A stretch of DNA of 64,000 nt from Nucisporomicrobium flavum (GTDB lineage: Bacteria; Actinomycetota; Actinomycetes; Mycobacteriales; Micromonosporaceae), in the NCBI RefSeq assembly GCF_016464385.1, contig NZ_JADMLH010000001.1, forward strand, positions 705,431 through 769,430, written 5' to 3'. The translations under genes and the position numbers were made by a program. Numbering within the stretch: the first letter of the stretch is position 1; the number at the start of each line of letters is the position of its first letter. Shown piece after piece: positions 8,861 to 59,408 of the stretch. The notes below the pieces were generated by a model. The model ran no database searches, was not told where the DNA came from, and saw only the letters and a program-made list of their open reading frames with translations.

Positions 8861-8879
8861 GGGACCTGCCGCCCTGCCG
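8861..8879 (+). promoter_or_regulatory. Conserved 19-bp box upstream of a USP gene
   Basis: Reads GGGACCTGCCGCCCTGCCG, oriented toward the USP gene, ending 46 bp before its ATG. Member of the recurring element described in the findings; the regulator is inferred to be DosR-like. Confidence 0.6.
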
Positions 8880-8925
8880 CCTCCGCATCGAAGCGCGTGA
8901 GGATGGGAGGAGAAGGGAGAGTCCC

Positions 8926-9795
8926 ATGACCGCCAAGAAAATCATCGTCGGTTACGACCGTTCCCCGGAGGCCCGTGCCGCTGCGGCGTGGGCTCTGGAC
9001 GAGGCGGCCCGCACCGGCGCGCTGGTGGAGTTCTTCTACGCGTACGAGTGGCCGACCTGGGCGCCGGCGGCGTCCACCGTGCCCTCCCCCGCGGTCTGGC
9101 CGGACGGCGAGACCGACCGCGCCATCAAGGGCGCGCTGCAGGAGGCCGTGACCGAGGCCCGGCAGACCCACCCGCAGGTGCGCACCGAGGTGTCCATCGT
9201 GAACGCCAGCGCCGCCCTGACGCTCATCGACCGCTCCGCCGAGGCCAGCCTCATCGTGCTCGGCAGCCAGGGCCACAGCGCGGTGACCGGCATGCTCGGC
9301 TCGGTCAGCGTCGCGGTCAGCGCCCACGCCCACTGCCCGGTCATCGTGGTCCGGGGCGACAACGGGCACGCCGGTCCCGTGGTGGTCGGCGTCGACGACT
9401 CGCCCTGCGCGCAGCTCGCCCTGGCCTTCGCCCTCGAGCAGGCGGCCGAGCGCGGCGCGCCGGTACGCATCATCCACGCGTGGCGTCCGGTCTCCGGCAT
9501 CTGGGAGGACAGCCCGCTGGTCACCCGGGAGGTCACCGACCAGGAGCGCCGCCCCTTCGACGAGCTCGTGGCGGCGTGGCAGCAGAAGTACCCGCAGGTG
9601 ACGATCACCGCGGAGGCCGTCGTGGACCACCCGGCCCACGCCCTGGCGGCCGCGAGCACCACCGCGCGGCTGCTGGTGGTCGGCACCCGGGGACGCGGCG
9701 CGTTCCGCGGGATGCTGCTCGGCTCGGTGAGCCAGCACCTGCTGCGGCACTCGGCCTGCACGGTGGCCATCGTCCGCGAGGTTGCCGGAAGCTGA
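8926..9795 (+). CDS. Universal stress protein, tandem UspA domains
   Basis: 289 aa with two UspA domains (about 1-143 and 148-287). Each ends in the ATP-binding signature G-x2-G-x9-G(S): GSQGHSAVTGMLGS in the first and GTRGRGAFRGMLLGS in the second, so both may bind ATP. In M. tuberculosis, two-domain USPs such as Rv2623 bind ATP and promote growth arrest. Start ATG follows GGGAGAGTCCC. The gene stands alone between two hairpins, with the conserved box 46 bp upstream, so it is a monocistronic member of the putative regulon. Confidence 0.9.
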   Translation: MTAKKIIVGYDRSPEARAAAAWALDEAARTGALVEFFYAYEWPTWAPAASTVPSPAVWPDGETDRAIKGALQEAVTEARQTHPQVRTEVSIVNASAALTLIDRSAEASLIVLGSQGHSAVTGMLGSVSVAVSAHAHCPVIVVRGDNGHAGPVVVGVDDSPCAQLALAFALEQAAERGAPVRIIHAWRPVSGIWEDSPLVTREVTDQERRPFDELVAAWQQKYPQVTITAEAVVDHPAHALAAASTTARLLVVGTRGRGAFRGMLLGSVSQHLLRHSACTVAIVREVAGS

Positions 9796-9803
9796 GCCCG
9801 GCA

Positions 9804-9838
9804 GCGACGCCGGGCCCGCGGTGCGGGCCCGGCGTCGC
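9804..9838. terminator. Perfect 16-bp hairpin between convergent genes
   Basis: GCGACGCCGGGCCCGC, 3-nt loop, exact reverse complement. It sits between the USP stop (9795) and the stop of the minus-strand helix-turn-helix gene (9844), so it probably terminates both. Confidence 0.8.
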
Positions 9839-9843
9839 GCTGT

Positions 9844-10140
9844 CTACGCCGCCGGCGGCGGCGGGGACTTGCCCTCCAGCACGGCCAGGATCTCGCCGAT
9901 CTGGTGCTCGCGCTCCAGGGGGTGCCGCAGCGGCAGCTCACGGTGCAGCTGGTAGCGGTTGCGCCGGCCGTCGCGGGTGCTGGTCAGATAGCCCGCCTCG
10001 ACGAGGTCGGCGACGATGCGCTGCGCCGCCCGCTCCGTGATGCCGACCTGGGCGGCCAGGTCCCGGTGCCGGAGGCCGGGGTCGCGGGCCACGCAGATCA
10101 GCACGTGGGCGTGGTTGGTGAGAAAAGTCCAGTCCGGCAC
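9844..10140 (-). CDS. Winged helix-turn-helix regulator, MarR/ArsR-like
   Basis: 98 aa. The sequence reads as a winged helix: N-terminal helix FLTNHAHVLICVARDPG, HTH LRHRDLAAQVGITERAAQRIVADLVEAGYL, wing TSTRDGRRNRYQL, then a short helix and Pro tail. No sensor domain or Cys cluster. GTG at 10140 is the only good start; TAGGAT lies about 8 bp before it, suggesting a leaderless transcript. It is divergent from the membrane-protein gene at 10331, and the shared 190-bp region holds one good box (toward 10331) and one weak box (toward this gene). It may regulate its neighbour; direct evidence is lacking. Confidence 0.75.
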   Translation of the reverse strand: MPDWTFLTNHAHVLICVARDPGLRHRDLAAQVGITERAAQRIVADLVEAGYLTSTRDGRRNRYQLHRELPLRHPLEREHQIGEILAVLEGKSPPPPAA

Positions 10141-10177
10141 GGGCTCTGATCCTACGAGTCCCCCGCCACCGCCGGGC

Positions 10178-10196
10178 GGTCAGGGCGACGCACGGC
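10178..10196 (-). promoter_or_regulatory. Weak copy of the conserved box
   Basis: On the minus strand the right part reads CGCCCTGACC, matching the core, but the left part does not match. It lies 37 bp before the GTG of the helix-turn-helix gene. Low confidence. Confidence 0.25.
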
Positions 10197-10257: not shown

Positions 10258-10276
10258 GTGACCTCCGGCCCTTACC
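10258..10276 (+). promoter_or_regulatory. Conserved 19-bp box upstream of a small membrane protein gene
   Basis: Reads GTGACCTCCGGCCCTTACC, oriented toward the gene at 10331 and ending 54 bp before its ATG. Confidence 0.55.
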
Positions 10277-10330
10277 CGCGGGGCGCGGCGGGAGCAGGCT
10301 GGACAGGGAGGCCGGAAGGGGGTGGCGACC

Positions 10331-10705
10331 ATGAGGCTCAGCCTGCGCGACGCCGTCGCCGCGCTGATGATGGGAGTGATCCTGACGCCGTACGCGACAC
10401 TGCTCGTCCGCGGGCGCGAGCCGTACGTCGGCAACGTGGCGACCATGGCGGCGCTGTCCCTGGTCGTGGCCGGCGGCGTGTTCGTGGTCGCCGGCGGGAT
10501 CACCGTCCGTACGCTGATCGGCCGGGTGGAGGTCGGCTTCGCCGTCGCCGCCCTGGCGCTCGGCGTGGTCACGGTGCTCCTCGGCGACACGCCCCTCGGG
10601 CAGCTGCTGCTCGGCGCGTTCATCACGCTGGTGCTGCTGACGTGGGGCACCCAGCTGCTCGACCACGCCGGCTACCTGCAGCCGCCGCCCCACCGGCCGT
10701 CATGA
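10331..10705 (+). CDS. Small four-helix membrane protein
   Basis: 124 aa, nearly all membrane-embedded: four hydrophobic segments ([75 protein letters not shown]). No known motif. The run GGAAGGGGG lies about 10 bp before the chosen ATG; a GTG nine bases earlier is possible. It overlaps the 3' end of the convergent P-type ATPase gene by 6 bp. With a conserved box upstream, it is one of five small membrane proteins in the putative regulon. Confidence 0.75.
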
Positions 10706-13386
10706 CGTCCGCTGTCGTGCCCGGCGCCGGTACAGCTCGTCCACTCCCCACACCAGCAGCGGGAACGGGGCCAGGAACGCCAGGTGCGCCGGGCCCAGCG
10801 CCGCGGTGCCGAACAGGGCCTGCAGCGGCGGCAGATAGATCACGGCCGCGGCGAAGACCAGCTCGAACGCGATCCCGCCGAGCAGCAGCCGGTTGGTGAA
10901 CACCCCGATCGAGCGCAGCGAGGCCCGGTCGGTGCGGGCGGCGAACGCGGTGCCGAGCTGACAGGCGACGATGCCGGCGAACGTCATCGTGGTGGCCTCG
11001 CGGTACGCGCCGTGCAGCGCGGAGCCCGGACCCGTCGCCGCGCCGGGCTGCCAGCCGGCCCGCCACAGCGACCAGAAGAACCCCGCCATGACCAGCGCCG
11101 CCGACGTCACGCCCAGCAGACCCCAGGCGCGCAGCAGCAGGCGCCGGTCGATGACCCCGCTGCGCGGTGAGCGCGGCGGGCGGCGCATCAGCCCCGGCTC
11201 CGCCGGTTCGCGCCCCAGCGCCAGGGCGGGCAAGGTCTCCGTACCCAGGTCGATGGCGAGGATCTGCAGCACGGTCAGCGGCAGCGGAATGGCCCCGCCG
11301 GAGAGCGCGAAGATCAGGAACGGCACCACCTCGGGTACGGCGTGCGCGAAGATGTACAGCACGAACTTGCGGACGTTGTCGTACACCCGCCGCCCGGCGT
11401 GCACCGCCTTGACGATGGTGGCGAAGTTGTCGTCGGTGAGCACCATCGTGGCGGCCTCCCGGGCGACGTCCGTGCCGGAGCGGCCCATGGCGACGCCGAT
11501 GTCGGCGTGCCGCAGGGCGGGAGCGTCGTTGACCCCGTCCCCGGTCATGGCCACGACCTTGCCGGCCGCGCGCAGCGCCTCGCAGATGCGCAGCTTGCCC
11601 TCCGGCGTGGAGCGGGCGAAGACGATCTCCTCGTCCCCGGCGAGCAGCCGGTCGAGCTCGGTCTCGCTCATCGCCTCCAGCTCCGTGCCGGTGACGACGC
11701 GCCCGCCGCCGATCCCCGCCTGGCGGGCGATCTCGGCCGCCGTGGGCCCGTAGTCGCCGCTGATGACGTGGATGCGGATGCCGGCCCGGTGCGCTCCGCC
11801 CACCGCCTCGGCGACGCCGTCGCGCAGCGGGTCGGCCAGGGCCAGCAGCCCGAGCAGCGTGAGGCCGGCCTCGGCGTGGTCGCGTTCCGGCGTGCGACCG
11901 GCGCCGACGAAGCCGTACGCGACCGACAGCACCCGCAGGCCGGCGGCGGCGTACCGGTCGACGGCGGCCTGCAGCTGCGCGCGCACCTCGGCGGAGAGCG
12001 CCACGCTGTGCCCGCCGGGGCCCACGACCCGGTCGCACAGCGGCAGGACGGACTCCACCGCGCCCTTGGTGTGCACCCGGGCGCCGTCCACGGTGGACAT
12101 GCGCTTGAGGCGGCTGTCGAAGGCGTACAGGAAGGTCCGCTCGGCGTCGCGCTCGGCGGCGTGCACCGGGACCGCCAGCTGGTCCGCGAAGCGCAGCAGG
12201 GCCAGCTCCATCGGGTCGCCGGTGTCGTGCGGCGCGCCGTCCCCCGCCACCCGTGCCGTGGTGCACCGGGCCGCCGCGGTGGCCAGCTCCCGTGCCCGCC
12301 CGTCGCCGCGTGCGGCCGCCGCGTCCAGCTCGGAGCCGTACAGCCAGATCCGGGACACCCGCATGCGGTTCTCGGTCAGGGTGCCCGTCTTGTCCGTACA
12401 GATGACCGCCGTGGATCCGAGGGTCTCCACCGCGGACAGCCGCTTGACGACCGCGCCGACGCGGGCCAGTTCCCGGACGCCGACGGCGAGAGCCAGGGTG
12501 ATGGTCGGCAGCAGGCCCTCGGGCACGTTCGCCACGATCAGGCCGATGGCGAAGCTGATGGCCGCGGCCCAGCCCAGCCCGGCGACCACGCCGATGGGCA
12601 GGAACGCGGCCCCGGCGGCGACCGCCACGGCCGCGATGACCCAGGTGGCCCGGCGCACCTGGCGCTCGAGCGGGCTGGGCTCCCCGCGGCCCCGCTGCGA
12701 GAGCGCGGCGATCCGGCCGATCTCGGTGTGCATACCGGTCCGGGTGACCACCGCCCGGCCCTCCCCCGCGGTGCACACCGTCCCGCTGAACACCATCTCG
12801 CGCGCCTCGAGCAGCGGCCCGGCCACGACCTCCGCGTCCGCCGACCGCGACGCCGGGACCGACTCGCCGTTGAGCGCCGACAGGTCCACCGACAGCGCCC
12901 CGTCCACCAGCCGGCCGTCGGCGCAGATCCGGTCACCCTCCTCGACCACCAGGACGTCGCCGGGCACCAGCTCCCCGCCGGTACGTCGCACAGCACCCCG
13001 TCGCGCAGCACCCGCGCCGAGACCGGCAGGTACGCCGCCAGCGCCTCCACGGCCCGTTCCGCCTGCATCTCCTGCGCGAACGCGAACGCGGCGTTGAGCA
13101 GGATCACCGCCACCACGGCGAGTGCCAGCGCCGGGGTGCCGCCGAGCCAGGCCAGCACCGCGGCCACCATGAGCAGCACGGCCAGGGGCTGGGTGAACTG
13201 GGCGAGAAGCTCGCGCGGCCAGCGCCGGCGCTCCCGGCGGGACAGTTCGTTGGGGCCGTACACGGTGAGCCGCCGGGCGGCCTCCCTCGCGCCGAGCCCG
13301 GCGGGACCGGTACGCAGGTCCCGGAAGAGTTCGACGGGGGGACGCCGTTCGTCGACCGGGCCGGGTGCCGTCGTCGTCTGCGTCAT
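10700..13386 (-). pseudogene. Cation-transporting P-type ATPase (CtpF-like), frameshifted
   Basis: A P2-type ATPase split over two frames. The first part (13386 to about 12973) starts [20 protein letters not shown] and holds the N-terminal cation-ATPase domain and TM1-2. The second part carries [20 protein letters not shown] in TM4, the phosphorylation motif [14 protein letters not shown], the hinge [10 protein letters not shown] and a six-helix C-terminal domain. The parts join if one G is added to the G-run (CCCC at 12973-12976 on the plus strand), restoring [10 protein letters not shown]. So this is either a true one-base deletion or a homopolymer sequencing error. Intact length would be about 895 aa. 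The closest well-known relative is CtpF (Rv1997), a DosR-regulon pump. Last gene of a minus-strand operon. Confidence 0.85.
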
Positions 13387-13417
13387 GACTCCAGGCTTTC
13401 CACCGCGGGCGCGGGAC

Positions 13418-13436
13418 GGACAGGGCCGGGCGGCCC
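13418..13436 (-). promoter_or_regulatory. Conserved 19-bp box upstream of the P-type ATPase
   Basis: Minus strand reads GGGCCGCCCGGCCCTGTCC, ending 31 bp before the ATPase ATG and oriented toward it. It lies between this gene and the next upstream gene, so the ATPase may have its own promoter. Confidence 0.6.
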
Positions 13437-14407: not shown

Positions 14408-14426
14408 GCGCAGGGCCTCAGGTCAC
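14408..14426 (-). promoter_or_regulatory. Conserved 19-bp box upstream of the small membrane protein
   Basis: Minus strand reads GTGACCTGAGGCCCTGCGC, 56 bp before the ATG at 14351. It overlaps the last codons of the cNMP-binding gene at 14418, so the site sits inside the operon. Confidence 0.5.
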
Positions 14427-15928: not shown

Positions 15929-16302
15929 CGCACTCAACTCCCTCGGCACGGGGACGACGGCGTCCCCGTGCCTTGATGGTGTCCGGTGCCCGGCCCCCGG
16001 GACAGAGTCGGGAGTCCGGGACCGCCGGGACTTCCGTCCGCCGCGGCGGCCCGCCGGCCGGGGCTCGGCGGAGGGGTCGAACGGCCCTGTCGCCGGCGAC
16101 CCGGCGGGGCGATGCTGGCCCTGACGCCACCGGAGCCCGGACGTAGCGACCGGGCCGAGGAGACAGATGCGATGGCCGGAGCGCCACCAGACCCACCGTC
16201 GTCAGGACGGGACCTGGCCCGGCCGCTGCGCCACGCGGGCCCCGGCGGCGTCTCGTCCACACCGGGCGTTCGTCCATACCGGACGGAGAGAAGGTGAACG
16301 CG
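15929..16302. other. 374-bp divergent control region with several box-like sequences
   Basis: No gene seen. It separates the minus-strand ATPase operon from the plus-strand USP gene. It holds one good box copy (16074-16092), a left-half copy GGGACTTCCGTCC at 16027-16039 and a right-half copy TGGCCCTGACGCC at 16126-16138, all reading toward the USP gene. I saw no clear minus-oriented copy for the operon. A short hairpin lies at about 15952-15970 (GGGGACG/CGTCCCC). Confidence 0.5.
16074..16092 (+). promoter_or_regulatory. Conserved box in the divergent region, distal to USP
   Basis: Reads GGGTCGAACGGCCCTGTCG. Oriented toward the USP gene but 210 bp before its ATG, farther than all other copies, implying a long leader or a remote site. 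Confidence 0.45.
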
Positions 16303-17184
16303 ATGGAGAGCGTCACCGGCGCTCCCGTGGTCGTCGGGGTGGACACCTCCCCGCGCAGCAACGACGCCGTGGAACTGGCGGCGGCCGAGGCGGCCCTGCG
16401 GCACCGGCCGTTGCGGATCGTGCACGCGTTCCTGTGGCCCCTGGCCCGCCTCGCTGTGCCGCCGGCGTCGCCGTACCCGGCCCTGGACGCCTTCCGCGAC
16501 GAGGCCCGCAGCCTGCTCACCGACGCCGAACGGCTCGCCGCCAAGACGGCGCCCGGCACCCGGATCACCACCGAGATCATCACCGACCTGCCGGTGCCGG
16601 CGCTGCTGGCCGAGAGCCGGCACGCCGACCTGCTGGTCGTGGGCGACCGCGGCTCCGGCGGCTTCCGCGGCCTGGTCGTGGGCTCGGTGGCGGTACAGAC
16701 CGCCACGCACGCCTCCTGCCCGGTGCTGATCGCCCGGCGCCGCCGCGACGCGGCCGGCCCGGTCATCGTCGGCATCGACGGTTCCGCGGCATCGCAGCGC
16801 GCGCTGGAGTTCGCCGCGCGCGAGGCCTCCCTGCAGGGCGTCGACCTCGTCGCGGTGCACGCCTGGGGACTGCCGCCCACGCTCGGGGCCGGCGAGCTCG
16901 TGCCGCTGGCGTACGAGCTGGCGGCGGCCCGGGACGAGGAGGAGCGGATCCTCGCCGAGTCCCTGGCCGGCACGGCTCAGCTCTGGCCGGACGTCCGGAT
17001 CCAGCGCGACCTGCACCGGGGAGCCCCGGCGCGGGCCCTGCTGGGCTGGTCCCGGCGGGCACGCCTGATCGTCGTCGGCAGCCGCGGCCACGGCGGCTTC
17101 CCGGGGCTCCTGCTCGGCTCGGTGGGCCAGCACCTCATCCACCACGCGGCCTGCCCCGTCGCCGTGGTCCGCGCGGCGCCGTGA
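16303..17184 (+). CDS. Universal stress protein, tandem UspA domains
   Basis: 293 aa from ATG 16303 (GAAGG 8 bp upstream); an in-frame GTG at 16294 would add three residues. Two UspA domains: the first ends GDRGSGGFRGLVVGS and the second GSRGHGGFPGLLLGS, both complete ATP-binding signatures. The first domain begins VVVGVDTSPRSNDAVELAAAEA and the second VIVGIDGSAASQRALEFAARE. It is convergent with the CBS-BON gene at 17210 (25-bp gap) and divergent from the ATPase operon. USP and CBS-BON partners occur side by side repeatedly in this window. Confidence 0.9.
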   Translation: MESVTGAPVVVGVDTSPRSNDAVELAAAEAALRHRPLRIVHAFLWPLARLAVPPASPYPALDAFRDEARSLLTDAERLAAKTAPGTRITTEIITDLPVPALLAESRHADLLVVGDRGSGGFRGLVVGSVAVQTATHASCPVLIARRRRDAAGPVIVGIDGSAASQRALEFAAREASLQGVDLVAVHAWGLPPTLGAGELVPLAYELAAARDEEERILAESLAGTAQLWPDVRIQRDLHRGAPARALLGWSRRARLIVVGSRGHGGFPGLLLGSVGQHLIHHAACPVAVVRAAP

Positions 17185-17899: not shown

Positions 17900-17952
17900 C
17901 AGGAGACCTCCTTGTCGCGTCACCTCCGACGCTAGGAGCCCGGCGGCAGGCC

Positions 17953-17971
17953 GGTCAGGGCCGACAGTCCC
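17953..17971 (-). promoter_or_regulatory. Near-perfect conserved box upstream of CBS-BON gene 1
   Basis: Minus strand reads GGGACTGTCGGCCCTGACC, 53 bp before the ATG. The flanks extend the match (TTT before, GG after). Confidence 0.7.
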
Positions 17972-18507: not shown

Positions 18508-18562
18508 GCCGCTCACCTCCGTACCGGCTCTCACCTGCAGTGTGAGCCGGGCCGGGGCGGCC

Positions 18563-18581
18563 GATCAGGGCCGGACGTCCT
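18563..18581 (-). promoter_or_regulatory. Conserved box upstream of the single-domain USP
   Basis: Minus strand reads AGGACGTCCGGCCCTGATC, 55 bp before the USP ATG. Confidence 0.6.
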
Positions 18582-22487: not shown

Positions 22488-22518
22488 GGTTCCAGCGTCG
22501 CTCGCGCGGCGCGGGCGG

Positions 22519-22537
22519 GCCCAGGGCCGAAAGTCCA
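22519..22537 (-). promoter_or_regulatory. Conserved box upstream of a tandem USP
   Basis: Minus strand reads TGGACTTTCGGCCCTGGGC, ending 31 bp before the ATG. The nitroreductase on the other side has only a degenerate GGGAC-containing sequence (22617-22635), 56 bp before its start. Confidence 0.6.
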
Positions 22538-24851: not shown

Positions 24852-24902
24852 GGCGTTCCTCCTTCTGTTCCACCTCCGACGCTACGGCGACCAGGTGTCG
24901 GA

Positions 24903-24921
24903 CGTCAGGGCCGACAGGCCC
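24903..24921 (-). promoter_or_regulatory. Conserved box upstream of CBS-BON gene 2
   Basis: Minus strand reads GGGCCTGTCGGCCCTGACG, 51 bp before the ATG. The divergent USP at 25002 has no separate clear copy, so the site may serve both. Confidence 0.65.
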
Positions 24922-25001: not shown

Positions 25002-25898
25002 ATGGCACGGAACGACATCGTCGTGGGCACCGACGGCACGATGGCCGGGGCGGCGGCGGTGCGGTGGGCGGCCGCGGAGGCCGCGCGGCGCAACGTCCTG
25101 CTGCGCATCGTGCACTGCTTCGACTGGGACTACGACTCGTCGCGGCAGGGCTGCAGCAGCGGGTCGGCCGACGCCGCCCGGCAGCTCGCCGACGCGGTCA
25201 CCTCCGCCGCCCTGCACCAGGCCCGGGCCGTCGCGCCGGGTATCTGGCTGGAGGCGGACGCGCTGATCGGCGACGCGGCGTCGCACCTCGTCGAGGTCTC
25301 CGACACCGTCGCGCTCGTGGTCGTCGGCAGCCGCAGCCGCGGCGGGCTCGCCGGGCTGCTGCTGGGATCGGTGAGCCGGCGCGTCGCCGTGCACGCCTCC
25401 TGCCCGGTCGTCGTCGTGCGGGGCCGGGAAGACCTCGGCGACGGGCCGGTCGCCGCCGGCGTCGACCTCTCGGCGCGCGGGGAGCTGGTGCTGCAGCAGG
25501 CGTACGAGACCGCCGAGGCGCTCGGCTCCGAGCTGCGCGTGGTGCACAGCTGCACCCCGGCCGTCACACCGTGGGTGGGCACCGTGCCGGCGGCGGCCCC
25601 GGCGTACTTCGACGACGACGGGGAACGGGAGCGCCTGCACACCGTGGTGGGCCCGTGGCAGGACAAGTTCCCGCAGGTCAGCACCACCCTCACCATGTCG
25701 CACCAGCCCGCCGCGGGCGCCCTCGCCGCGGCCTCCCGGCAGGCGCGCCTGCTGGTCGTGGGCAGCCACGGGCACGGCACGGTCGCGGGCACGCTGCTCG
25801 GCTCGACCAGCCTGTCCCTGCTCCACCACGCGGACTGCCCGGTGCTGGTGGTCCGTACCCGCGGCATGGGCCCGTCATCCCGGGACTTTCGGCCCTGA
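25002..25898 (+). CDS. Universal stress protein, tandem UspA domains
   Basis: 298 aa, ATG behind AAAGGAG. Starts ARNDIVVGTDGTMAGAAAVRWAA. Signatures GSRSRGGLAGLLLGS and GSHGHGTVAGTLLGS are both complete. The final codons (…RDFRP, stop) overlap the conserved box that serves the next gene, so the coding end and the regulatory site share bases. First gene of a plus-strand run USP, Acg, Acg, SHOCT, DUF4389, each new transcription unit having its own box. Confidence 0.9.
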   Translation: MARNDIVVGTDGTMAGAAAVRWAAAEAARRNVLLRIVHCFDWDYDSSRQGCSSGSADAARQLADAVTSAALHQARAVAPGIWLEADALIGDAASHLVEVSDTVALVVVGSRSRGGLAGLLLGSVSRRVAVHASCPVVVVRGREDLGDGPVAAGVDLSARGELVLQQAYETAEALGSELRVVHSCTPAVTPWVGTVPAAAPAYFDDDGERERLHTVVGPWQDKFPQVSTTLTMSHQPAAGALAAASRQARLLVVGSHGHGTVAGTLLGSTSLSLLHHADCPVLVVRTRGMGPSSRDFRP

Positions 25899-25900
25899 CC
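25882..25900 (+). promoter_or_regulatory. Best copy of the conserved box, overlapping a stop codon
   Basis: Reads GGGACTTTCGGCCCTGACC, the reference copy. It spans the last five codons and the TGA (25896-25898) of the USP gene and ends 51 bp before the Acg ATG. Confidence 0.75.
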
Positions 25901-25951
25901 TGCGGGTGACCGCCCCGGCACGGTGTGAGAAGAAGGCAGGAGGTTCCCACC

Positions 25952-27930: not shown

Positions 27931-27949
27931 GGGTCGTTCGGCCCGTGCC
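27931..27949 (+). promoter_or_regulatory. Conserved box upstream of the SHOCT protein gene
   Basis: Reads GGGTCGTTCGGCCCGTGCC, ending 54 bp before the ATG at 28004 and 15 bp after the nitroreductase stop. Confidence 0.55.
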
Positions 27950-28003
27950 GCCGCGGGGTACGCGGATCAGCATGGACGCAGCCGCACAGAAAGGACCGGA
28001 ACC

Positions 28004-28286: not shown

Positions 28287-28305
28287 GGGACATGCGGCTC
28301 TGCCG
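28287..28305 (+). promoter_or_regulatory. Conserved box upstream of the DUF4389 gene
   Basis: Reads GGGACATGCGGCTCTGCCG, ending 50 bp before the ATG at 28356. One core base differs (GGCTC for GGCCC). Confidence 0.5.
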
Positions 28306-30511: not shown

Positions 30512-30530
30512 GGGCAGGGCCGAAATGCCC
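30512..30530 (-). promoter_or_regulatory. Conserved box upstream of the SRPBCC-like gene
   Basis: Minus strand reads GGGCATTTCGGCCCTGCCC, 42 bp before the ATG at 30469. Confidence 0.65.
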
Positions 30531-30686: not shown

Positions 30687-33353
<2,667 letters not shown>

Positions 33354-44138: not shown

Positions 44139-44287
44139 GATCGGCCCCTTCCGCTCGTCCGGCCGGCTCGGCAGTGCCGGTAGCGACGCACCCCGCCCCA
44201 AAAGACCGTTTCGCGCCATATGATATCCCCTACTCAGATGCCCGGGGCCGCGGTCGATGAGAGGTGACCGGCCGCGAAGGAGGCACC

Positions 44288-47963: not shown

Positions 47964-48014
47964 CACGGACCTCCGCAGTCCTCGGGACCGAGGCTAGGCG
48001 GCACACCCGGTCCC

Positions 48015-48033
48015 GGCCAGGGCCGGTCGGCCC
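48015..48033 (-). promoter_or_regulatory. Conserved box upstream of CBS-BON gene 3
   Basis: Minus strand reads GGGCCGACCGGCCCTGGCC, 51 bp before the ATG at 47963. Confidence 0.6.
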
Positions 48034-48959: not shown

Positions 48960-49204
48960 ACCTCCACCGTGCGACTCGCACCGACGCCGCAGGCAGAGCC
49001 TAACGTCCCGTCCGTCCGGCAGCTGATCCGGCCGCCGTCACGACGCAGCAGCCCGAGCAGGATCCGCAGTGTGGTGGTCTTGCCCGCGCCGTTGGGTCCG
49101 AGGATGCCGTGCACCCCCGCGGCGACGGTCAGGTCCAGCCCGTCCAGCGCCCGTACGGTCCCGAAGGTCTTCGTCAGACCGGCCGCCGTGATCGCCGGGA
49201 TCAT
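48956..49204 (-). pseudogene. Truncated ABC transporter ATPase
   Basis: 82 residues: [59 protein letters not shown] match the first quarter of an ABC exporter ATPase with Walker [10 protein letters not shown]; then the similarity stops and unrelated residues lead to a stop. No Q-loop, signature or Walker B. No permease is nearby. The ATG and GAGGTGAACG are intact, so it may still be translated and couple to the slipin gene via the 4-bp overlap. Confidence 0.8.
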
Positions 49205-51808: not shown

Positions 51809-53251
51809 TCAGGAGGCTGGGGCGCCTGCGGGTGCGGCGACGCGCCGCCGGGCGGGCCGGGGTCCGGCGGGGCGGCAGGCGTCGCGCAGGATCCGGACCT
51901 CGTCGGTCACGAACCCGGCGAACTCGTCCGCCTCCGGCACCGAGGCGAAGTCGGTGGTGATGCCGAAGGCCGCCTGGCCGCCGTACGTGAAGACGGCCAC
52001 CCCGATGCGCAGCCGCTCGGCGATCGGGACGTACGGCAGGATCTCGCGGATCGGGCGGCCCAGCACGGACAGCGGCCGGCCGGGACCCGGCACGTTGGTG
52101 GTGACCGTGGTGATCGCCGACTGCGGCACCCGCAGGGCGGTCCGGATGATCATGGATACCGGCGGGAACGGCTCGCTGCCCGCCAGGGCCACCATGGCCG
52201 CGGCCGCCTCCACCTCGCCGCTGGCGCGCAGCTCGGCGATGCGCTCGTGCACGGCGCGCAGCCGCTGCATCGGCTCGTCGATCTCGACGGGCAGGAGCAG
52301 CAGCATCGAGGAGAGCCGGTTGTCCAGCAGCCCTTCCTGGTCGCGGGCGCGCACGTTGACGGGCACGAGGGTGCGTACGGCGTCGGCCGCGGGCTCCTCG
52401 CCCCGCTGCAGCATGAGCCGGCGGAACGCGCCCGCCACGGCGGCGAGGTACACGTCGTTGATGGTCACCGAGCAGGCGTCGGAGACCGAGGCGATGTCCG
52501 CCAGCGCGGTACGCGCGACCGCGTACCGTCGGGCCCTGCCGATCGGACCGGCGAGCGAGGTCGGCGCGGTGGGCACGAATCCCGCCGCGAGGGCGCCCAG
52601 CCCGCGCGTGGTGTCGAGCAGCCACCGGGCCACGTCGCCGGGCGAGCGTATGGCGCCGGCCACCACGCGCGCCTGGTCGAACGGGGTACGGGCCAGCTGC
52701 CCCAGCGCGTCCAGCGTGAGGTCGAGCGTGCTCACGTCCCGCCGCGGCTCCCAGTGGTCCTCCACCGGACGCGGCGTACGGGATCCGCCGTCACAGATCA
52801 GCTTGTACAGCTGGTTGCCCGAGACGCCGTCGATCAGGCAGTGGTGCACTTTGGACAGCAGCGCCCAGCGGCCCTCCGGCAGGCCCTCGATCAGCCAGTC
52901 CTCCCACAACGGCCGTTCCCGGTCGAGGCGCTGGCTCATCACCCGGGCCACGACCTGTTCGAGCGCCGCGTCGCCGCCGGGCTCGGCCAGCGCGGTTCGC
53001 CGCAGGTGGAAATCGAGGTCGAAAGCCGGGTCGTCGACCCACACCGGCCGGCCCAGGTTGAACGGGACCCGGCGGACCTTCTGCCGGTACCGGGGTACCA
53101 GCGGCAGCCGGCCGCGGATCAGCGCGGCGAACTCGGCCTGGCTCGGAGCCGGGCCGTCGAGGACGGCGATCGAGGCGATCGCGAGGGAGGCGTGTGGATC
53201 CCCGTCCTCGGCGTCGAGGAAGGACGCGTCCAACGGGCTCAGATATTCCAC
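51809..53251 (-). CDS. Wax ester synthase/diacylglycerol acyltransferase (Tgs-like)
   Basis: 480 aa, standard for the family. Active-site motif HHCLIDG at residues 136-142; other hallmarks PLWEDWLIEGL, NDVYLAAVAGAFRRLM (ND motif), VPVNVRARDQEG and TTVTTNVPGPGRPLSVLG. It transfers acyl-CoA to diacylglycerol or alcohol to form TAG or wax ester. In M. tuberculosis the main TAG synthase in hypoxia, Tgs1 (Rv3130c), is DosR-induced. A box copy 69 bp upstream here fits the same logic. First gene of the lipid operon. Confidence 0.95.
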   Translation of the reverse strand: MEYLSPLDASFLDAEDGDPHASLAIASIAVLDGPAPSQAEFAALIRGRLPLVPRYRQKVRRVPFNLGRPVWVDDPAFDLDFHLRRTALAEPGGDAALEQVVARVMSQRLDRERPLWEDWLIEGLPEGRWALLSKVHHCLIDGVSGNQLYKLICDGGSRTPRPVEDHWEPRRDVSTLDLTLDALGQLARTPFDQARVVAGAIRSPGDVARWLLDTTRGLGALAAGFVPTAPTSLAGPIGRARRYAVARTALADIASVSDACSVTINDVYLAAVAGAFRRLMLQRGEEPAADAVRTLVPVNVRARDQEGLLDNRLSSMLLLLPVEIDEPMQRLRAVHERIAELRASGEVEAAAAMVALAGSEPFPPVSMIIRTALRVPQSAITTVTTNVPGPGRPLSVLGRPIREILPYVPIAERLRIGVAVFTYGGQAAFGITTDFASVPEADEFAGFVTDEVRILRDACRPAGPRPARRRVAAPAGAPAS

Positions 53252-53320
53252 GGCTTCCTCCTGGAGTCGACGGCGGTCGGTGGTCGCCTCAGGTCACCAT
53301 CCGATGACAGCTCGTTCGCT

Positions 53321-53339
53321 CGCCAGGGTCGGACGGCCC
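53321..53339 (-). promoter_or_regulatory. Conserved box upstream of the WS/DGAT operon
   Basis: Minus strand reads GGGCCGTCCGACCCTGGCG, 69 bp before the ATG at 53251. One core mismatch (GACCC). Confidence 0.5.
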
Positions 53340-53347
53340 GCGCCCGG

Positions 53348-53366
53348 GACGCGTCCGGCCCTGCGT
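53348..53366 (+). promoter_or_regulatory. Conserved box upstream of the alpha/beta hydrolase at 53398
   Basis: Reads GACGCGTCCGGCCCTGCGT, ending 31 bp before the ATG. It lies back-to-back with the box serving the WS/DGAT operon, giving a divergent pair. Confidence 0.5.
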
Positions 53367-53397
53367 GCCACGGCGGCCGGCGGGGCACGCTGGAGGC

Positions 53398-55118: not shown

Positions 55119-55137
55119 GCGACCATCGGCCCTGTCC
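55119..55137 (+). promoter_or_regulatory. Conserved box upstream of the two-component system
   Basis: Reads GCGACCATCGGCCCTGTCC, ending 31 bp before the response regulator ATG. Confidence 0.55.
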
Positions 55138-55168
55138 GTCCGCCGGGCACGGGGGCAACCTGGAGGTC

Positions 55169-55861
55169 ATGGCGGGCACCGTGCTGGTCGTCGAGGACGA
55201 CCGCGAGCTGCGCGACCTGCTGCGCCGCTACCTCGAACGCGCCGGGTACGCCGTGCACACCACCGGTTCCGGCGCCGAGGCCATCGGCCTGCTCACCCGG
55301 GACCTGGTGGAGCTCATGGTGCTGGACCTGGGCCTGCCGGACGTCGACGGGCTGGACGTGCTGGCCGCCGCCCGGGACAGCCGCACGGTGCCGGTGGTCG
55401 TCCTGACCGCGCGCAGCGCCGTCGAGGACCGCATCGAGGGGCTGCGCCGCGGCGCCGACGACTACGTGACCAAGCCGTTCTCCCCCACCGAGCTGGTGCT
55501 GCGGGTGGAGGCGGTGCTGCACCGTACCCGTGGCGAGGGTGCGGTGGCCGGGCCGGACTCCTTCGGCGGCGGCCGGCTGCGCCTCGACGAGCCCCGGCAC
55601 ACCGCCGAGCTGGACGGCGCGCGGCTCGAGCTGACGCCGACCGAGTGGGGCGTGCTCACCGCGCTGGCGGCCGCGCCCGGGCGGGTCTTCTCCCGCTACG
55701 AGCTGATCAACCGGATCCGCGGGTACGAGTTCCCCGGGTACGAGCGGACCGTCGACTCGCACGTCAAGAACCTGCGCCGCAAGCTCGGACCGGACGCGGC
55801 GGGGCTGGTGGAGACGGTGCTCGGGGTCGGCTACCGGATGGGGTGGTCGCGTGACCGGTGA
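55169..55861 (+). CDS. OmpR-family response regulator
   Basis: 230 aa, ATG with GGAGG. Receiver domain: acidic pair E9/D10-D11, phospho-acceptor D53 in MVLDLGLPD, Thr in LTARSAVEDR, Lys in VTKPFSPTEL. C-terminal winged helix: LELTPTEWGVLTALAAAPGRVFSRYELINRI, RTVDSHVKNLRRKLG and VGYRMGW. Overlaps the kinase gene by 11 bp. It has the conserved box upstream, so the two-component system may be a downstream branch of the putative regulon. It is OmpR-type, not the NarL-type DosR. Confidence 0.96.
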   Translation: MAGTVLVVEDDRELRDLLRRYLERAGYAVHTTGSGAEAIGLLTRDLVELMVLDLGLPDVDGLDVLAAARDSRTVPVVVLTARSAVEDRIEGLRRGADDYVTKPFSPTELVLRVEAVLHRTRGEGAVAGPDSFGGGRLRLDEPRHTAELDGARLELTPTEWGVLTALAAAPGRVFSRYELINRIRGYEFPGYERTVDSHVKNLRRKLGPDAAGLVETVLGVGYRMGWSRDR

Positions 55862-57188
55862 CCGGCCGTACCTGTCGAGCCCGCTGAGCCGGCGGTTGCT
55901 CGCCGCGTTCCTGCTCGTCGCGCTGTCGTCGGTGGCGGCGCTGACCGTCGCGGCGCTGGTGGCCACCGACCGCGGCCTGGCCAGCGCCCAGCAGCAGCAG
56001 CGGCGGCAGGTCGCGGACCGGGTGGCCGCGGCGGCCGGCGCGGCGTACGCCCGGGCCGGCGGGTGGCCGGGCGCGGACCTGTCCGAGGCCTCCCGCCTGG
56101 CCGACGCCGCCGGGGCGCAGCTGGCGGTCCGGGACGCGGCGGGCGTCCCCGTCCGGCCCGGGCACGGCATGGGCCCCGGGATGATGGGCACGCGCGGCGG
56201 CGGCACGGTGCTGGAGTCGCCCGTAGCCGACGCGGGGCGCCGGGTCGGCGCTGTCCGGCTCACGTTCACCGCCACGGACGGCTCGGGCCGCAGCGTGGCA
56301 TGGTCGTGGGTGGCGGGCGCCGCAGTGGTCGCGCTGCTCGCCGCCCTGGCCGTGAGCTGGTACGTCGCCCGCCGGCTCACCCGGCCGCTGATCACCGTGG
56401 CCGGCGTCGCGCGGCGCTTCGCGGGCGGCGACCGGACGGCCCGGGCCCGGCTCACCGCCCCGGGCGAGCTGGGCGAGGTCGCGCACGCCTTCGACGCCAT
56501 GGCGGACGAGGTGGTCCGTACCGACGCGATCCGCCGCCGGCTCGCCGCCGATGTGGCGCACGAGCTGCGGACGCCCCTGGCCGGGTTGCAGGCCGGGCTG
56601 GAGGAGCTGCGCGACGGCCTGCGCCCGGCCGATCCGGAGCGGCTGGCGGCGCTGCACGACCAGAGCCTGCGGCTGGGCCGGATCGTCCGGGACCTCGCCG
56701 ACCTGTCCGCCGCGGAAGCCGCCACCGTGTCGCTGGAACCGGTCGGCACGGACCTGACCGGCCTCGCCCGCGCCGCGCTGGCCGCGCAGGAGCCCCTGCT
56801 CACGGCGGCCGGGTTGCGGGTCACCAGCGACCTGCACGTGCCGGCGCCGGTGCGGGCCGACCCCGACCGGCTGCACCAGGCCGTGACGAACGTGCTCGCC
56901 AACGCCGCCCGCTACGGCCGGCCCGGCGACCGGGTGCACCTCGCCACGTCCGTACGGGACGGCGAGGCGGTGCTGCGGATCGCCGACACCGGCCCCGGCA
57001 TCCCGCCCGACGAGTTGCCGTACGCGTTCGACCGCATGTGGCGCGGCCGCGACGCCCAGGCCATCCCCGGCACCGGGATCGGGCTGACCGTCGTCCGCGA
57101 GCTCGTCGCCGCCCACGGCGGCAGCACCGACATCGCCTCCCCGCCCGGCGAGGGGGTCACCGTCACCATCCGGCTGCCGTTGAGCTAG
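55851..57188 (+). CDS. Sensor histidine kinase
   Basis: 445 aa, GTG at 55851. Two membrane helices (17-39 and 150-171) enclose an extracytoplasmic loop with a Gly/His/Met stretch (GHGMGPGMMG, about 104-113) that could bind copper. HAMP follows (RRLTRPLITVAGVARRFAGGD), then HisKA with H237 in DVAHELRTPLAG, and HATPase with N box NVLANAARYG, DTGPGIPP and GTGIGLTVV. It partners the response regulator. Its 3' end overlaps the convergent DsrE gene by 4 bp; the adjoining sulfur operon has a copper/persulfide-type operator, so metal or sulfur sensing is plausible. Confidence 0.95.
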   Translation: MTGDRPYLSSPLSRRLLAAFLLVALSSVAALTVAALVATDRGLASAQQQQRRQVADRVAAAAGAAYARAGGWPGADLSEASRLADAAGAQLAVRDAAGVPVRPGHGMGPGMMGTRGGGTVLESPVADAGRRVGAVRLTFTATDGSGRSVAWSWVAGAAVVALLAALAVSWYVARRLTRPLITVAGVARRFAGGDRTARARLTAPGELGEVAHAFDAMADEVVRTDAIRRRLAADVAHELRTPLAGLQAGLEELRDGLRPADPERLAALHDQSLRLGRIVRDLADLSAAEAATVSLEPVGTDLTGLARAALAAQEPLLTAAGLRVTSDLHVPAPVRADPDRLHQAVTNVLANAARYGRPGDRVHLATSVRDGEAVLRIADTGPGIPPDELPYAFDRMWRGRDAQAIPGTGIGLTVVRELVAAHGGSTDIASPPGEGVTVTIRLPLS

Positions 57189-57694
57189 ATGAAGAGCAGC
57201 TGAGCTTCGGTGGTCTTCTCGATGAAGTCGGCGGCGTTGATGATGTCCTCGACGCCGTCGTAGAGCTCCTCGCGGGTCAGGTGCATCATGTCCGCGGACA
57301 TCCGGCACGCCCACAGGTGACCGCCCGAGGCGACGATCTGGTCGAGGAACTCGGGCACCTCCGGCACGCCGAGATCGGCGATCTGCTTCTTCATCCGGTG
57401 CGTGGCCATCGCCGTCATGCCGGGCAGGCCGCCCAGCCCTTGGGGCAGGTGCGTCGCGGTGTTGCCCAGCATCGTGAACTTCAGGTCGCCCATCCGGGCC
57501 TTGATGATCATGTCGAAGCCCCAGAAGGTGAAGAACAGGTGCGTCTCCACGCCCTCCCCGAGCGCGGCGTTGGCGAGCACCAGCGCCGGGTACGCCATGT
57601 CGAGGTTCCCCTTGGAGCAGATGATGGCGAGCTTGCGCCCGGCGGCCTCGTCGTCGAAGTCCGGTACGAGGGCGGGCGTGGTTCCGGTGGTCAT
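57185..57694 (-). CDS. DsrE/DsrE2-family sulfur carrier
   Basis: 169 aa. DsrE2-like: KLAIICSKGNLDMAYPALVLANAALGEGVETHLFFTFWGFDMI with C26, and ASGGHLWACRMSADMMHL with C130. These two Cys are the persulfide-carrying positions of DsrE2A proteins. It would accept sulfane sulfur and pass it along the chain. Third gene of a minus-strand sulfur operon, 13 bp after the DsrC/TusE-like gene. Confidence 0.9.
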   Translation of the reverse strand: MTTGTTPALVPDFDDEAAGRKLAIICSKGNLDMAYPALVLANAALGEGVETHLFFTFWGFDMIIKARMGDLKFTMLGNTATHLPQGLGGLPGMTAMATHRMKKQIADLGVPEVPEFLDQIVASGGHLWACRMSADMMHLTREELYDGVEDIINAADFIEKTTEAQLLFI

Positions 57695-57707
57695 GGCGAG
57701 CTCCGTT

Positions 57708-58022
57708 TCAGACGCAGCCGTGCGGCTTGGGCAGGCCGGCGATGTAGGCCAGCTTCTTCGCCGGCTTCTTCGGGAACAGGGCGAACAGCTCCTTGGTGGG
57801 GATGCCGCCGACGGTGGAGACCCGGCGCAGCGTGGCGGTCTCGCCCTGCACGGCGTAGTCCGCGCGCAGGAAGTCGATCGCCCGGCGGTGCGCGTCGGTG
57901 AGGCCGATGCCGATCGCGGCGGCGAGCTCCTCGGCGAGGTCCGGGTCCCACTCCTCGTAGACGGTCAGGAATCCCTCGTCGTCGACGTGCACGGTGCGGC
58001 CAGCGATGGTGGTGACAGGCAT
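57708..58022 (-). CDS. TusE/DsrC-like sulfur relay protein
   Basis: 104 aa from ATG 58022 (GAGG five bases upstream). Full-length DsrC/TusE fold: TIAGRTVHVDDEGFLTVYEEWDPDLAEELAAAIGIGLTDAHRRAIDFLRADY, and the C-terminal tail AGLPKPHGCV with the conserved penultimate Cys, C103. The second Cys of true DsrC, about ten residues earlier, is absent (LAYIAGLP), so this is the one-Cys form closer to TusE. Overlap with the SQR-like operon indicates sulfur transfer during sulfide oxidation or tRNA thiolation. Confidence 0.9.
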   Translation of the reverse strand: MPVTTIAGRTVHVDDEGFLTVYEEWDPDLAEELAAAIGIGLTDAHRRAIDFLRADYAVQGETATLRRVSTVGGIPTKELFALFPKKPAKKLAYIAGLPKPHGCV

Positions 58023-58029
58023 GGCTGCC

Positions 58030-59271
58030 TCATTTCTCATCGGTGGGTGCCTGCTTGCCGGCCATGGACATGTGCGCCGGCAACGGGAGGGGGCGGCCGG
58101 GCAGCAGCACGTTCCAGTACATCCACCGGAACGCGAGCTTGCCCCAGTGGTTCACGGCGGCGTCGGTCAGCAGCCGGAACGGGCCGACGCCGGGCAGCGG
58201 ATAGCGGCCCGGCAGCGGCTCGGTGTCGTAGTTGAAGTCGATGAGAAGCGCCTTGCCGTCGCCGGACTCCACGAAGCAGTTGGCGTGGCCGTCGAACCGG
58301 CCGGTCATCGGCCGCCCGGCGGCGTACGCGACGAAGTTGTCCGCGAACACGTCGACGGCGAAGTGCGCGACCGAACCGGCCTTCGAGGTCGGGATGTCGT
58401 TGGCGTCGCCGAGGGCGAAAACGTTGTCGTGGGCCCGCGAGAGCAGCGTGTGCCGGTCCACCGGAACCAGGTTCAGCTCGTCGCCCAGGCCGGAACGGGC
58501 GACGAAGTCGGCGCCCATGTTCAGCGGTACGGTCACCAGCAGGTCGAACGGGATCTCCCGCTCGTCGTAGGAGACCAGCTTGGTGCCGTCGACCCGCTCG
58601 ACCAGGAAGTCCGGCTCGACCACGATCTTCCGGTCGTCCAGCATCGAGCCGAGCCGCGCGGAGGCGATCGGCTTGGTGAACGCCCCGGACAGCGGGGTGG
58701 CGTACACGAGGTCGGTCCGGTCCCGCAGGCCGCGCCGGCGGAGGTGGGCGTCGGCGAGGAAGGCGAACTCGAGCGGCGCGACCGGGCACTTGATCGGCAG
58801 GTCGGTGATGTGCACGACGAGCCGGCCACCCTCGAACCGGTCGAGGGCCTTCGCGAGCGCGAGGGCGCCGTCGTAGGTGTAGAAGTCGAAGATCTCCTTC
58901 CGCCAGTGGCCGCCGTCGAGCATTCCGGGGGTCTGGTCCGGCCGCGGGGTCACCCCGGTGGCGATCACCAGGTAGTCGTACGGCAGGTTCCGGCCGTCGG
59001 ACAACGACACCCGGTTCTCGTCGGCCATCACGCGGCCGACCTCCCCGCGTACGAGCTCCACGCCGTCGGCGATCAGCGGCGCGGTGGGTCTGACCACCTG
59101 CTCCGGGCGGTACCCGCCGAACGGGAGCAGCAGGTAGCCGGGCTGGTAGTGGTGCGTGTCGCTGGGCTCCACCACGGTGATCCGCCAGTCCGTACGGGCC
59201 AGCCGGCGACGCAGCTTGTTGACCACCATCGTCCCCGCGGTGCCGGCGCCGAGTACGAGCAGCCGTCGCAT
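58030..59271 (-). CDS. Sulfide:quinone oxidoreductase-like flavoprotein
   Basis: 413 aa, ATG at 59271 behind GGAGGTGG. FAD-binding N-terminus LLVLGAGTAGTMVVNKL; YDYLVIATG; second dinucleotide region; FALGDANDIPTSKAGSVAHF near the flavin ribityl. Two Cys suited to the catalytic pair: C162 (PIKCPVAP) and C332 (GHANCFVE). The C-terminal membrane-facing helices (LAFRWMYWNVLLPGRPLPLP) match SQR-type enzymes. It should oxidise sulfide to sulfane sulfur with electrons to quinone. A CsoR/CstR-type operator lies 26 bp upstream. First gene of the SQR-DsrC-DsrE2 operon. Confidence 0.9.
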   Translation of the reverse strand: MRRLLVLGAGTAGTMVVNKLRRRLARTDWRITVVEPSDTHHYQPGYLLLPFGGYRPEQVVRPTAPLIADGVELVRGEVGRVMADENRVSLSDGRNLPYDYLVIATGVTPRPDQTPGMLDGGHWRKEIFDFYTYDGALALAKALDRFEGGRLVVHITDLPIKCPVAPLEFAFLADAHLRRRGLRDRTDLVYATPLSGAFTKPIASARLGSMLDDRKIVVEPDFLVERVDGTKLVSYDEREIPFDLLVTVPLNMGADFVARSGLGDELNLVPVDRHTLLSRAHDNVFALGDANDIPTSKAGSVAHFAVDVFADNFVAYAAGRPMTGRFDGHANCFVESGDGKALLIDFNYDTEPLPGRYPLPGVGPFRLLTDAAVNHWGKLAFRWMYWNVLLPGRPLPLPAHMSMAGKQAPTDEK

Positions 59272-59297
59272 CGCAGCCACCTCCATCCTGCCTCCAG

Positions 59298-59313
59298 ATA
59301 CCCCCTAGGGTAT
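59298..59313. promoter_or_regulatory. CsoR/CstR-type operator before the sulfur operon
   Basis: ATACCCCCTAGGGTAT, an imperfect palindrome (ATACCC...GGGTAT) of the form bound by CsoR-family repressors, including the copper sensor CsoR and the persulfide sensor CstR. In front of SQR and DsrE genes, the CstR reading is the natural one. No CsoR/CstR gene lies in the window. Confidence 0.75.
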
Positions 59314-59389
59314 TGACGCGGCGGCCGGCGTCCCAGGGAACGAGGTCCTCGTGGCACCGGGCCCTTCGTCCGGCCCCCGGCGGAACGGC

Positions 59390-59408
59390 GGGACTTAAGG
59401 CCCTGTCA
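59390..59408 (+). promoter_or_regulatory. Conserved box upstream of the USP at 59503
   Basis: Reads GGGACTTAAGGCCCTGTCA, followed by TCCC. It ends 94 bp before the ATG and points toward it. Confidence 0.6.

What the first reader, a model, noticed from the sequence alone, without database searches (positions are those of the whole stretch)
8861..59408. A 19-bp directional box repeated about 20 times defines a putative regulon
The sequence GGGACNTNCGGCCCTGNCC recurs in intergenic DNA (for example 17953-17971, 25882-25900, 30512-30530, 59390-59408). Every good copy is oriented with GGCCCTG toward the gene it precedes, on either strand. The gap from box end to start codon is 50-56 bp in nine cases (10331, 14351, 17899, 18507, 24851, 25952, 28004, 28356, 47963) and exactly 31 bp in four (13386, 22487, 53398, 55169). 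Such phase and polarity point to a promoter-bound activator rather than chance GC-richness.
Basis: seen in the sequence. Interest (0 to 1): 0.8.

Follow-up and report, generated by a model that had tools for sequence, protein, structure and literature searches.

The report
DosR-type hypoxia regulon promoter box
The repeated 19-base box is real, points at the genes it precedes, and usually has a promoter-like -10 sequence at a fixed distance behind it; it is most likely the binding site of the DosR/OsdR-type oxygen-sensing regulator fused to a promoter, predicted to switch on stress and fermentation genes together in an Actinoplanes-like soil bacterium.

Summary
The box is confirmed and is best read as a DosR/OsdR operator fused to a promoter. 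In the window 23 copies occur within 3 mismatches against 4.5 expected. The 19 bp split into a near-palindrome resembling the published OsdR site and a -35-like tail, cTGnCc. A -10-like hexamer, nAnnnT, follows 18-19 bp later in 16 of 18 window boxes, 18 of 30 hold-out boxes and 23 of 28 boxes of same-genus genomes, with at most 3, 4 and 5 at other offset pairs. The two box-to-start distances follow: genes at 30-31 bp lack a strong Shine-Dalgarno sequence (0 of 12; predicted leaderless), genes at 40-60 bp have one (28 of 34). The genome encodes a DevR orthologue (E 2e-74) beside a DevS/DosT-like kinase; in 19 of 22 Micromonosporaceae osdR genes, own included, the best upstream box also lies at 30-31 bp. 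Boxed genes are DosR-type stress genes plus pyruvate formate-lyase and pyruvate:ferredoxin oxidoreductase. The system is known; seven library searches showed no description of it in this family. OsdR binding, transcription starts and sigma factor are untested.

The parts
8861..8879 (+). box; -10-like GAGGAT at 8899-8904; precedes Usp gene 8926-9795 (gap 46)
10258..10276 (+). box; -10-like CAGGCT 10295-10300; precedes 10322/10331-10705 (no Pfam match)
13418..13436 (-). box; -10-like AAGCCT 13393-13398; P-type cation ATPase 10700-13386 (start inferred), gap 31, no SD (predicted leaderless)
14408..14426 (-). box; no ANNNT at the fixed offset; start 14351 (short ORF), gap 56 with SD
16074..16092 (+). 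box; -10-like GATGCT 16111-16116; Usp gene 16294-17184 (gap 201)
17953..17971 (-). box; -10-like TAGCGT 17929-17934; CBS-BON gene 17210-17899 (gap 53, SD)
18563..18581 (-). box; -10-like CACACT 18539-18544; Usp gene 18067-18507 (gap 55, SD)
22519..22537 (-). box; -10-like GACGCT 22494-22499; Usp gene 21621-22487, gap 31, no SD (predicted leaderless)
24903..24921 (-). box; -10-like TAGCGT 24879-24884; CBS-BON gene 24159-24851 (gap 51, SD)
25882..25900 (+). perfect box; -10-like CACGGT 25919-25924; 25952-26950 (no Pfam match) and nitroreductase-like 26947-27915 (gap 51, SD)
27931..27949 (+). box; -10-like CAGCAT 27968-27973; 28004-28252 (gap 54, SD)
28287..28305 (+). box; DUF4389 gene 28356-29804 (gap 50, SD); no ANNNT at the fixed offset, and most orthologues lack it too
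30512..30530 (-). box; -10-like CAGGCT 30488-30493; 29810-30469 (gap 42, SD); divergent from PPDK-like 30687-33353
48015..48033 (-). box; -10-like TAGCCT 47991-47996; CBS-BON gene 47304-47963 (gap 51, SD)
48991..49009 (-). box; -10-like CACGGT 48966-48971; Band 7 gene 48120-48959, gap 31, no SD (relatives mostly have the box at 81-91 bp)
53321..53339 (-). box; -10-like GATGGT 53296-53301; wax ester synthase/DGAT gene 51809-53251 (gap 69, SD)
53348..53366 (+). degenerate box (right half only); -10-like CACGCT 53386-53391; alpha/beta hydrolase gene, ATG 53398, gap 31
55119..55137 (+). box; -10-like CAACCT 55156-55161; OmpR-type response regulator 55169-55861, gap 31, no SD (predicted leaderless), then histidine kinase 55851-57188
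59390..59408 (+). box; -10-like AAGGCT 59427-59432; Usp gene 59503-60384 (gap 94, SD)

Best explanation
The 19-bp box is a directional module, a DosR/OsdR-type near-palindrome joined to a -35-like tail and in most cases followed 18-19 bp further on by a -10-like hexamer, and it most likely is where the phosphorylated OsdR (DevR) orthologue of this genome would bind and recruit RNA polymerase when oxygen falls. Shown: the box, its orientation, the fixed -10-like hexamer, the absence or presence of a strong Shine-Dalgarno sequence in the two distance classes, the OsdR/OsdK-like gene pair, and the make-up of the downstream genes. Inferred: that OsdR binds here; that the tail acts as -35; that transcription starts about 31-32 bp after the box (operator centred near -42.5/-43.5, the class II position as I recall it), so that 30-31 bp genes are leaderless and 40-60 bp genes carry a short leader; that the signal is hypoxia or a related redox cue; that osdR activates itself through a leaderless promoter of the same design.
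For: Box excess. Fixed hexamer: 16/18 window, 18/30 hold-out, 23/28 same-genus exact boxes, against background means of 0.45, 1.11 and 0.68 per offset pair. In 80 named osdR-bearing loci of other actinomycetes 39 loci hold 78 boxes (score 14 or more) against 8 hits for the reversed matrix; ANNNT is present 34 and 14 times at the two offsets, at most 5 times at any other. Tail TGNC present 13/18 and 19/30 on the promoter side against 1 and 1 in mirror position (the matrix favours the tail, so the hold-out figure is not free of selection). Strong SD 0/12 versus 28/34, Fisher p 5e-7. DevR orthologue at G000:C1:110735-111376, E 2.3e-74 to DevR 3c3w over residues 1-212, with FLAEKTVKNYVS shared in the DNA-binding domain and Asp54 kept; another response regulator of the genome matches VraR and NarL better than DevR. 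The adjacent kinase matches DevS GAF chains and 2vzw (DosT as I recall; named only probable histidine kinase) and, with its end part, DosT and DevS ATPase domains. Published OsdR site AGGGCCGATCGGCCCT, AGGGACCTTCGGCCCC before SCO0167 and narG2, gel shifts (PMC5069765, passages); overlap of the proximal Dev box with -35 in M. tuberculosis (PMC3029386, passages). Across species: 21 of 21 pyruvate formate-lyase orthologues of 80% identity or more with a readable start keep box (score 12.2 or more) and hexamer. osdR itself: best box at gap 30-31 in 19 of 22.
Against: No expression, binding or transcription-start data. The hexamer rarely has T in its first place (3/16, 1/18, 0/23), so it is a poor consensus -10. 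12 of 30 hold-out boxes lack it, as do most DUF4389 promoters (2 of the 16 boxes of score 13 or more have ANNNT). 13 of the 30 hold-out boxes come from stretches picked because one search had found a match there, so their number is not evidence of excess. In-gene hits have the hexamer in 3 of 15. The own osdR box is weak (score 11.0), five of the 19 osdR boxes at gap 30-31 score under 10, and the osdR hexamer is TAGAAA or the like, ending in A. Genome-wide at 2 mismatches the box barely exceeds its control. The Band 7 gene has a box in 10 of 24 loci (own included), eight of them at 81-91 bp, not 31. Among 7 pyruvate formate-lyase orthologues of 74-76% identity only 1 has a box of score 13 or more.
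Confidence: 0.87

Rival explanations
1. The same promoters are driven by another NarL/LuxR-family regulator or by an alternative sigma factor whose -35/-10 recognition accounts for the tail and the nAnnnT hexamer, and OsdR is not the regulator.
For: The genome has 82 GerE-domain matches; the -10-like hexamer is atypical.
Against: The core resembles the published OsdR and DevR site; the gene content is that of DosR regulons; an orthologue with the shared recognition segment exists and a strong box lies between its kinase gene and a nitroreductase-like gene; 39 of 80 osdR-bearing loci of other actinomycetes hold a box of score 14 or more.
Confidence: 0.08
2. The box is a near-palindromic operator used as an upstream (class I) or repressor site, and the fixed hexamer is a binding site of a second protein rather than a -10.
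For: The operator is nearly symmetric; no start sites are mapped.
Against: In the SD-less 30-31 bp class the start codon lies 6-7 nt after the hexamer in the 11 of 12 cases that have it, as expected of a -10 before a leaderless start; the hexamer keeps its place in loci of several actinomycete orders.
Confidence: 0.04
3. GC-rich chance resemblance enriched by the reader's eye.
For: At 2 mismatches genome-wide 55 hits against 46 in the control.
Against: Shuffles, hold-out matrix test on 340 kb, 41 exact boxes in 40 genomes, own included, against 2 for the backward pattern, the independent -10 phase.
Confidence: 0.01

Closest known systems
OsdKR (SCO0203/SCO0204) regulon of Streptomyces coelicolor, PMC5069765
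   Same: Operator sequence (AGGGCCGATCGGCCCT; AGGGACCTTCGGCCCC among listed sites), Usp, nitroreductase and PPDK genes among the predicted targets, clustering of sites in one chromosomal region (passages).
   Different: The paper gives distances to starts, but the terms '35 element', 'transcription start' and 'leaderless' do not occur in its text, nor 'formate' or 'hydrogenase' as word starts. Here pyruvate formate-lyase and PFOR genes carry the box.
DevR/DosR regulon of Mycobacterium tuberculosis, PMC3029386
   Same: Orthologous response regulator, related GAF sensor kinases, start-proximal site overlapping -35 (passages).
   Different: There, cooperative binding to two or more closely packed sites is described; here second sites are no more frequent than the intergenic rate would give (13 candidates in 77 upstream regions; about 16 by a rate that includes the primary boxes; the best three are partner boxes of divergent promoters).

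Membership tests
DosR/OsdR regulon | NarL-family response regulator orthologous to DevR | tested here: met
   E 2.3e-74 over 212 residues; next best 1.1e-42 (VraR)
DosR/OsdR regulon | DevS/DosT-type GAF sensor kinase beside it | tested here: met
   by sequence; that the aligned HPPM histidine binds haem is recalled, not tested
DosR/OsdR regulon | Near-palindromic operator GGGAC/GGGCC...GGCCC upstream of target genes | tested here: met
DosR/OsdR regulon | Proximal operator overlaps -35 of the target promoter | tested here: met
   sequence level only: tail TGNC and fixed -10-like hexamer; function untested
DosR/OsdR regulon | Typical targets (Usp, nitroreductase, WS/DGAT, CBS) | tested here: met
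   that these are typical of DosR regulons is partly recalled
M. tuberculosis-type DosR promoters | Two or more closely packed operators per promoter | tested here: inconclusive
   no excess, but the background rate includes the primary boxes
DosR/OsdR regulon | Induction by hypoxia/NO through OsdR phosphorylation | not testable with these tools
   no expression data

The most novel reading that the evidence does not exclude
In Actinoplanes-like actinomycetes, commonly regarded as aerobes (recalled), DosR/OsdR is a fermentation switch: one rigid single-operator promoter module turns on pyruvate formate-lyase, pyruvate:ferredoxin oxidoreductase, GAPDH and stress genes, uses a -10 that is deliberately poor (SAnnnTGG) so that it is silent without OsdR, and sorts its targets, osdR itself included, into leaderless and leadered mRNAs.
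Probability: 0.5. Interest if true: 0.62.

Novelty: new member of a known kind. Interest (0 to 1): 0.42.

Why it matters
It turns a loose sequence box into a readable promoter grammar (operator, -35-like tail, 18-19 bp, -10-like hexamer, start) that predicts start sites, leaderless genes and DosR targets in genomes without expression data, in several actinomycete orders. If right, it shows that the dormancy regulator best known from M. tuberculosis controls fermentation genes in soil actinomycetes, a setting in which it can be studied harmlessly.

Tried and rejected
Streptomyces as host: my first guess from size and G+C; dropped because the OsdR protein is 98% identical to that of Couchioplanes caeruleus, 89-96% to those of Winogradskya, Actinoplanes and Micromonospora relatives, and 66-71% to the three loci titled Streptomyces. 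Two binding phases for the 31 and 50-56 bp classes: rejected, the hexamer is at the same place in both. Tandem operators: no excess. The OmpR-type regulator at 55169 as the regulator of the boxes: not pursued, it is itself a boxed gene and the operator is of the OsdR kind. Literature: (7 searches, listings). None of the 15 papers shown of 255 holds Actinoplanes or Micromonospora; no held paper has both 'pyruvate formate-lyase' and 'Actinoplanes'. PMC5069765 was seen as outline and passages, PMC3029386 and PMC12919924 as passages only (the last not used).

Rows left out: 5 of 23 window hits from the training set; 10 of 40 hold-out hits of score 13 or more that lie in called genes; 16 of 77 boxes in the start/SD table for want of a clear frame, and its start rule prefers ATG, so three GTG starts at gap 31 (L082, L088, L097) were counted at 94. 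Of one search's 39 hits outside the own genome 28 were read (loci cap), and five of these (L072, L077, L087, L090, L092) are PFL promoters also counted. Of one search's 31 rows 28 were used (own, and two partial matches, left out),'s 25 rows 24. One search looked at 28 of the 80 osdR loci (all 21 of Micromonosporaceae, and 7 of the other 59) plus the own one. The hold-out stretches off the 404-kb block were chosen from hits.
Full report
Observation. The consensus GGGACNTNCGGCCCTGNCC matches 23 places in the window with up to 3 mismatches; 100 dinucleotide shuffles gave 4.54 on average and never more than 11. Eighteen lie before a gene start and point at it; five, set aside by eye, do not look like promoters. 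A fifth 31-bp case (48959) was added.

Test outside the window. A matrix built from the 18 window boxes was run on 340 kb of neighbouring chromosome: 19 hits at score 13 or more against 5, 7 and 3 in simulated sequence; 17 of 19 are intergenic though only 14% of that DNA is, and 14 of the 17 have a same-strand start 22-108 bp on. With at most one mismatch the consensus occurs 14 times in the 9.02-Mb genome against 3 for the backward pattern, 9 of the 14 on contig 1. At two mismatches the counts are 55 and 46, so loose matches elsewhere mean little. In 40 genomes of the same genus, own included, the exact consensus occurs 41 times, in 22 genomes, against 2 for the backward pattern.

Anatomy. 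Aligning the DNA behind the boxes showed a hexamer nAnnnT 18 or 19 bp after the box end. It was not part of the matrix, so on boxes outside the window it is an independent check: 16 of 18 window boxes, 18 of 30 hold-out intergenic boxes (17 of the 30 from the 340 kb, 13 from stretches chosen for their hits) and 23 of 28 same-genus boxes have it at these two offsets, against means of 0.45, 1.11 and 0.68 and maxima of 3, 4 and 5 for other offset pairs. Hold-out boxes inside genes (score 12 or more) have it in 3 of 15. In 80 named osdR-bearing loci, 39 loci hold 78 boxes of score 14 or more (8 for the reversed matrix); ANNNT occurs 34 and 14 times at the two offsets, at most 5 times at any other, and the excess is seen in Micromonosporaceae, in the Nocardioides-like group and in the rest. 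The last letters of the box, TGNC, are found 13/18 and 19/30 times on the promoter side but once each in the mirror position on the other side of the near-palindrome (the matrix itself favours the tail, so the hold-out count is not free of selection). I therefore read the 19-bp box as operator plus -35-like element, followed by a -10-like element. The first letter of the hexamer is rarely T (3/16, 1/18, 0/23), and GG often follows it; this is a weak -10, in line with dependence on an activator (inference).

Two distances. By a start rule that ignores Shine-Dalgarno sequences, 61 of 77 boxes could be given a start: 12 at 30-31 bp, 34 at 40-60 bp, 12 at 61-110 bp, 3 elsewhere. Strong SD motifs are present in 0 of 12, 28 of 34 and 5 of 12; counting weak motifs too, 1, 31 and 5 (p 5e-7 for the first two classes, strong motifs). 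In the 30-31 bp class the start codon comes 6-7 nt after the hexamer in the 11 of 12 cases that have the hexamer, where transcription would be expected to begin; these are predicted leaderless mRNAs. The operator centre would lie near -42.5/-43.5.

Regulator. The genome encodes a DevR orthologue at G000:C1:110735-111376, divergent from a Usp gene and a kinase gene. The kinase's GAF part best matches 2vzw (DosT as I recall) and DevS chains, its end part DosT and DevS ATPase domains. A box of score 22.9 lies between the kinase gene and a nitroreductase-like gene (the latter judged by eye, Acg-like as I recall that family). Among 21 Micromonosporaceae osdR loci and the own one, the best box in the 90 bp upstream lies at gap 30-31 in 19 of 22, with score 10 or more in 14 of these 19 (own 11.0); the hexamer is TAGAAA or TAGGAA in 15 of the 19, so it mostly ends in A and is outside the nAnnnT counts. 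In seven more distant loci, whose start codons I did not settle, 1 of 7 has it there. Thus osdR is likely self-activated from a leaderless promoter in this family.

Targets. In the window: six Usp genes, five of them with a box, three CBS-BON genes, a nitroreductase-like gene, P-type ATPase, WS/DGAT, Band 7, DUF4389 and an OmpR-type two-component pair. Elsewhere on contig 1: pyruvate formate-lyase with its activase (box gap 47), an NAD(P)-binding/glutamate-synthase-like protein with PFOR (gap 52), GAPDH followed by a CBS-like protein judged by eye (gap 53), and Usp genes; a hydrogenase cluster lies beside a boxed Usp gene, and no box of score 12 or more was found before its reverse-strand genes. 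Pyruvate formate-lyase is found in 26 of 40 same-genus genomes, own included; in all 21 orthologues of at least 80% identity with a readable start the promoter keeps box (score 12.2-25.7) and hexamer, while among 7 orthologues of 74-76% identity only 1 has a box of score 13 or more. Over all 28, 19 have a box of score 13 or more, each with the hexamer, and none has one on the opposite strand. Band 7: 10 of 24 with box, 9 with hexamer, eight at 81-91 bp; DUF4389: 16 of 23 with box, only 2 of these with the strict hexamer, and 6 with a box-like score on the other strand.

Comparison. The published OsdR site of S. coelicolor is AGGGCCGATCGGCCCT, and its table lists AGGGACCTTCGGCCCC, which shares GGGACCTTCGGCCC with boxes here such as C1:674839 (PMC5069765, passages). 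In M. tuberculosis the start-proximal Dev box overlaps -35 and two or more sites act together (PMC3029386, passages). So the kind is known. What I did not find in the searches made is this regulon in Micromonosporaceae, the explanation of the two distances, or the link with pyruvate formate-lyase. The library lacks most subscription papers and I saw only the top of each listing, so this is not proof of absence in print.

Noticed in passing
whole window; L048: The window belongs to an Actinoplanes/Couchioplanes-like Micromonosporaceae genome of 9.02 Mb rather than a Streptomyces, judged by OsdR identity (98% to Couchioplanes caeruleus).
   Followed up: partly
   Followed up: no
window 37576-38577 and 37141-37482: A sigma-70-family gene (regions 2 and 4) with a C-terminal SnoaL-like domain beside a separate SnoaL-like gene; looks like the ECF41 type (recalled).
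   Followed up: no
window 42198-45478: A GGDEF-EAL gene and a divergent GAF-EAL gene side by side, i.e. cyclic-di-GMP turnover beside the hypoxia-type regulon; no box of score 9 or more upstream of them.
   Followed up: no
window 57185-59286: DsrE-like, DsrC-like and pyridine nucleotide-disulphide oxidoreductase genes in a row, divergent from a boxed Usp gene; no box of score 9 or more of its own.
   Followed up: no
L038-L039, C1:577455-588415: Hydrogenase-like cluster (sulfhydrogenase-like large subunit, below the curated cut-offs; hyp-like neighbours judged by eye) beside a boxed Usp gene.
   Followed up: partly
L064 (G000:C6:70001-90000): My gene caller found no complete gene in 20 kb; perhaps one giant reading frame running off both ends.
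   Followed up: no
L234-L253 promoters: DUF4389 promoters mostly keep the box but have TCTGCT- or TGTCCT-like letters in place of the strict hexamer; a recurring variant that I cannot explain.
   Followed up: no
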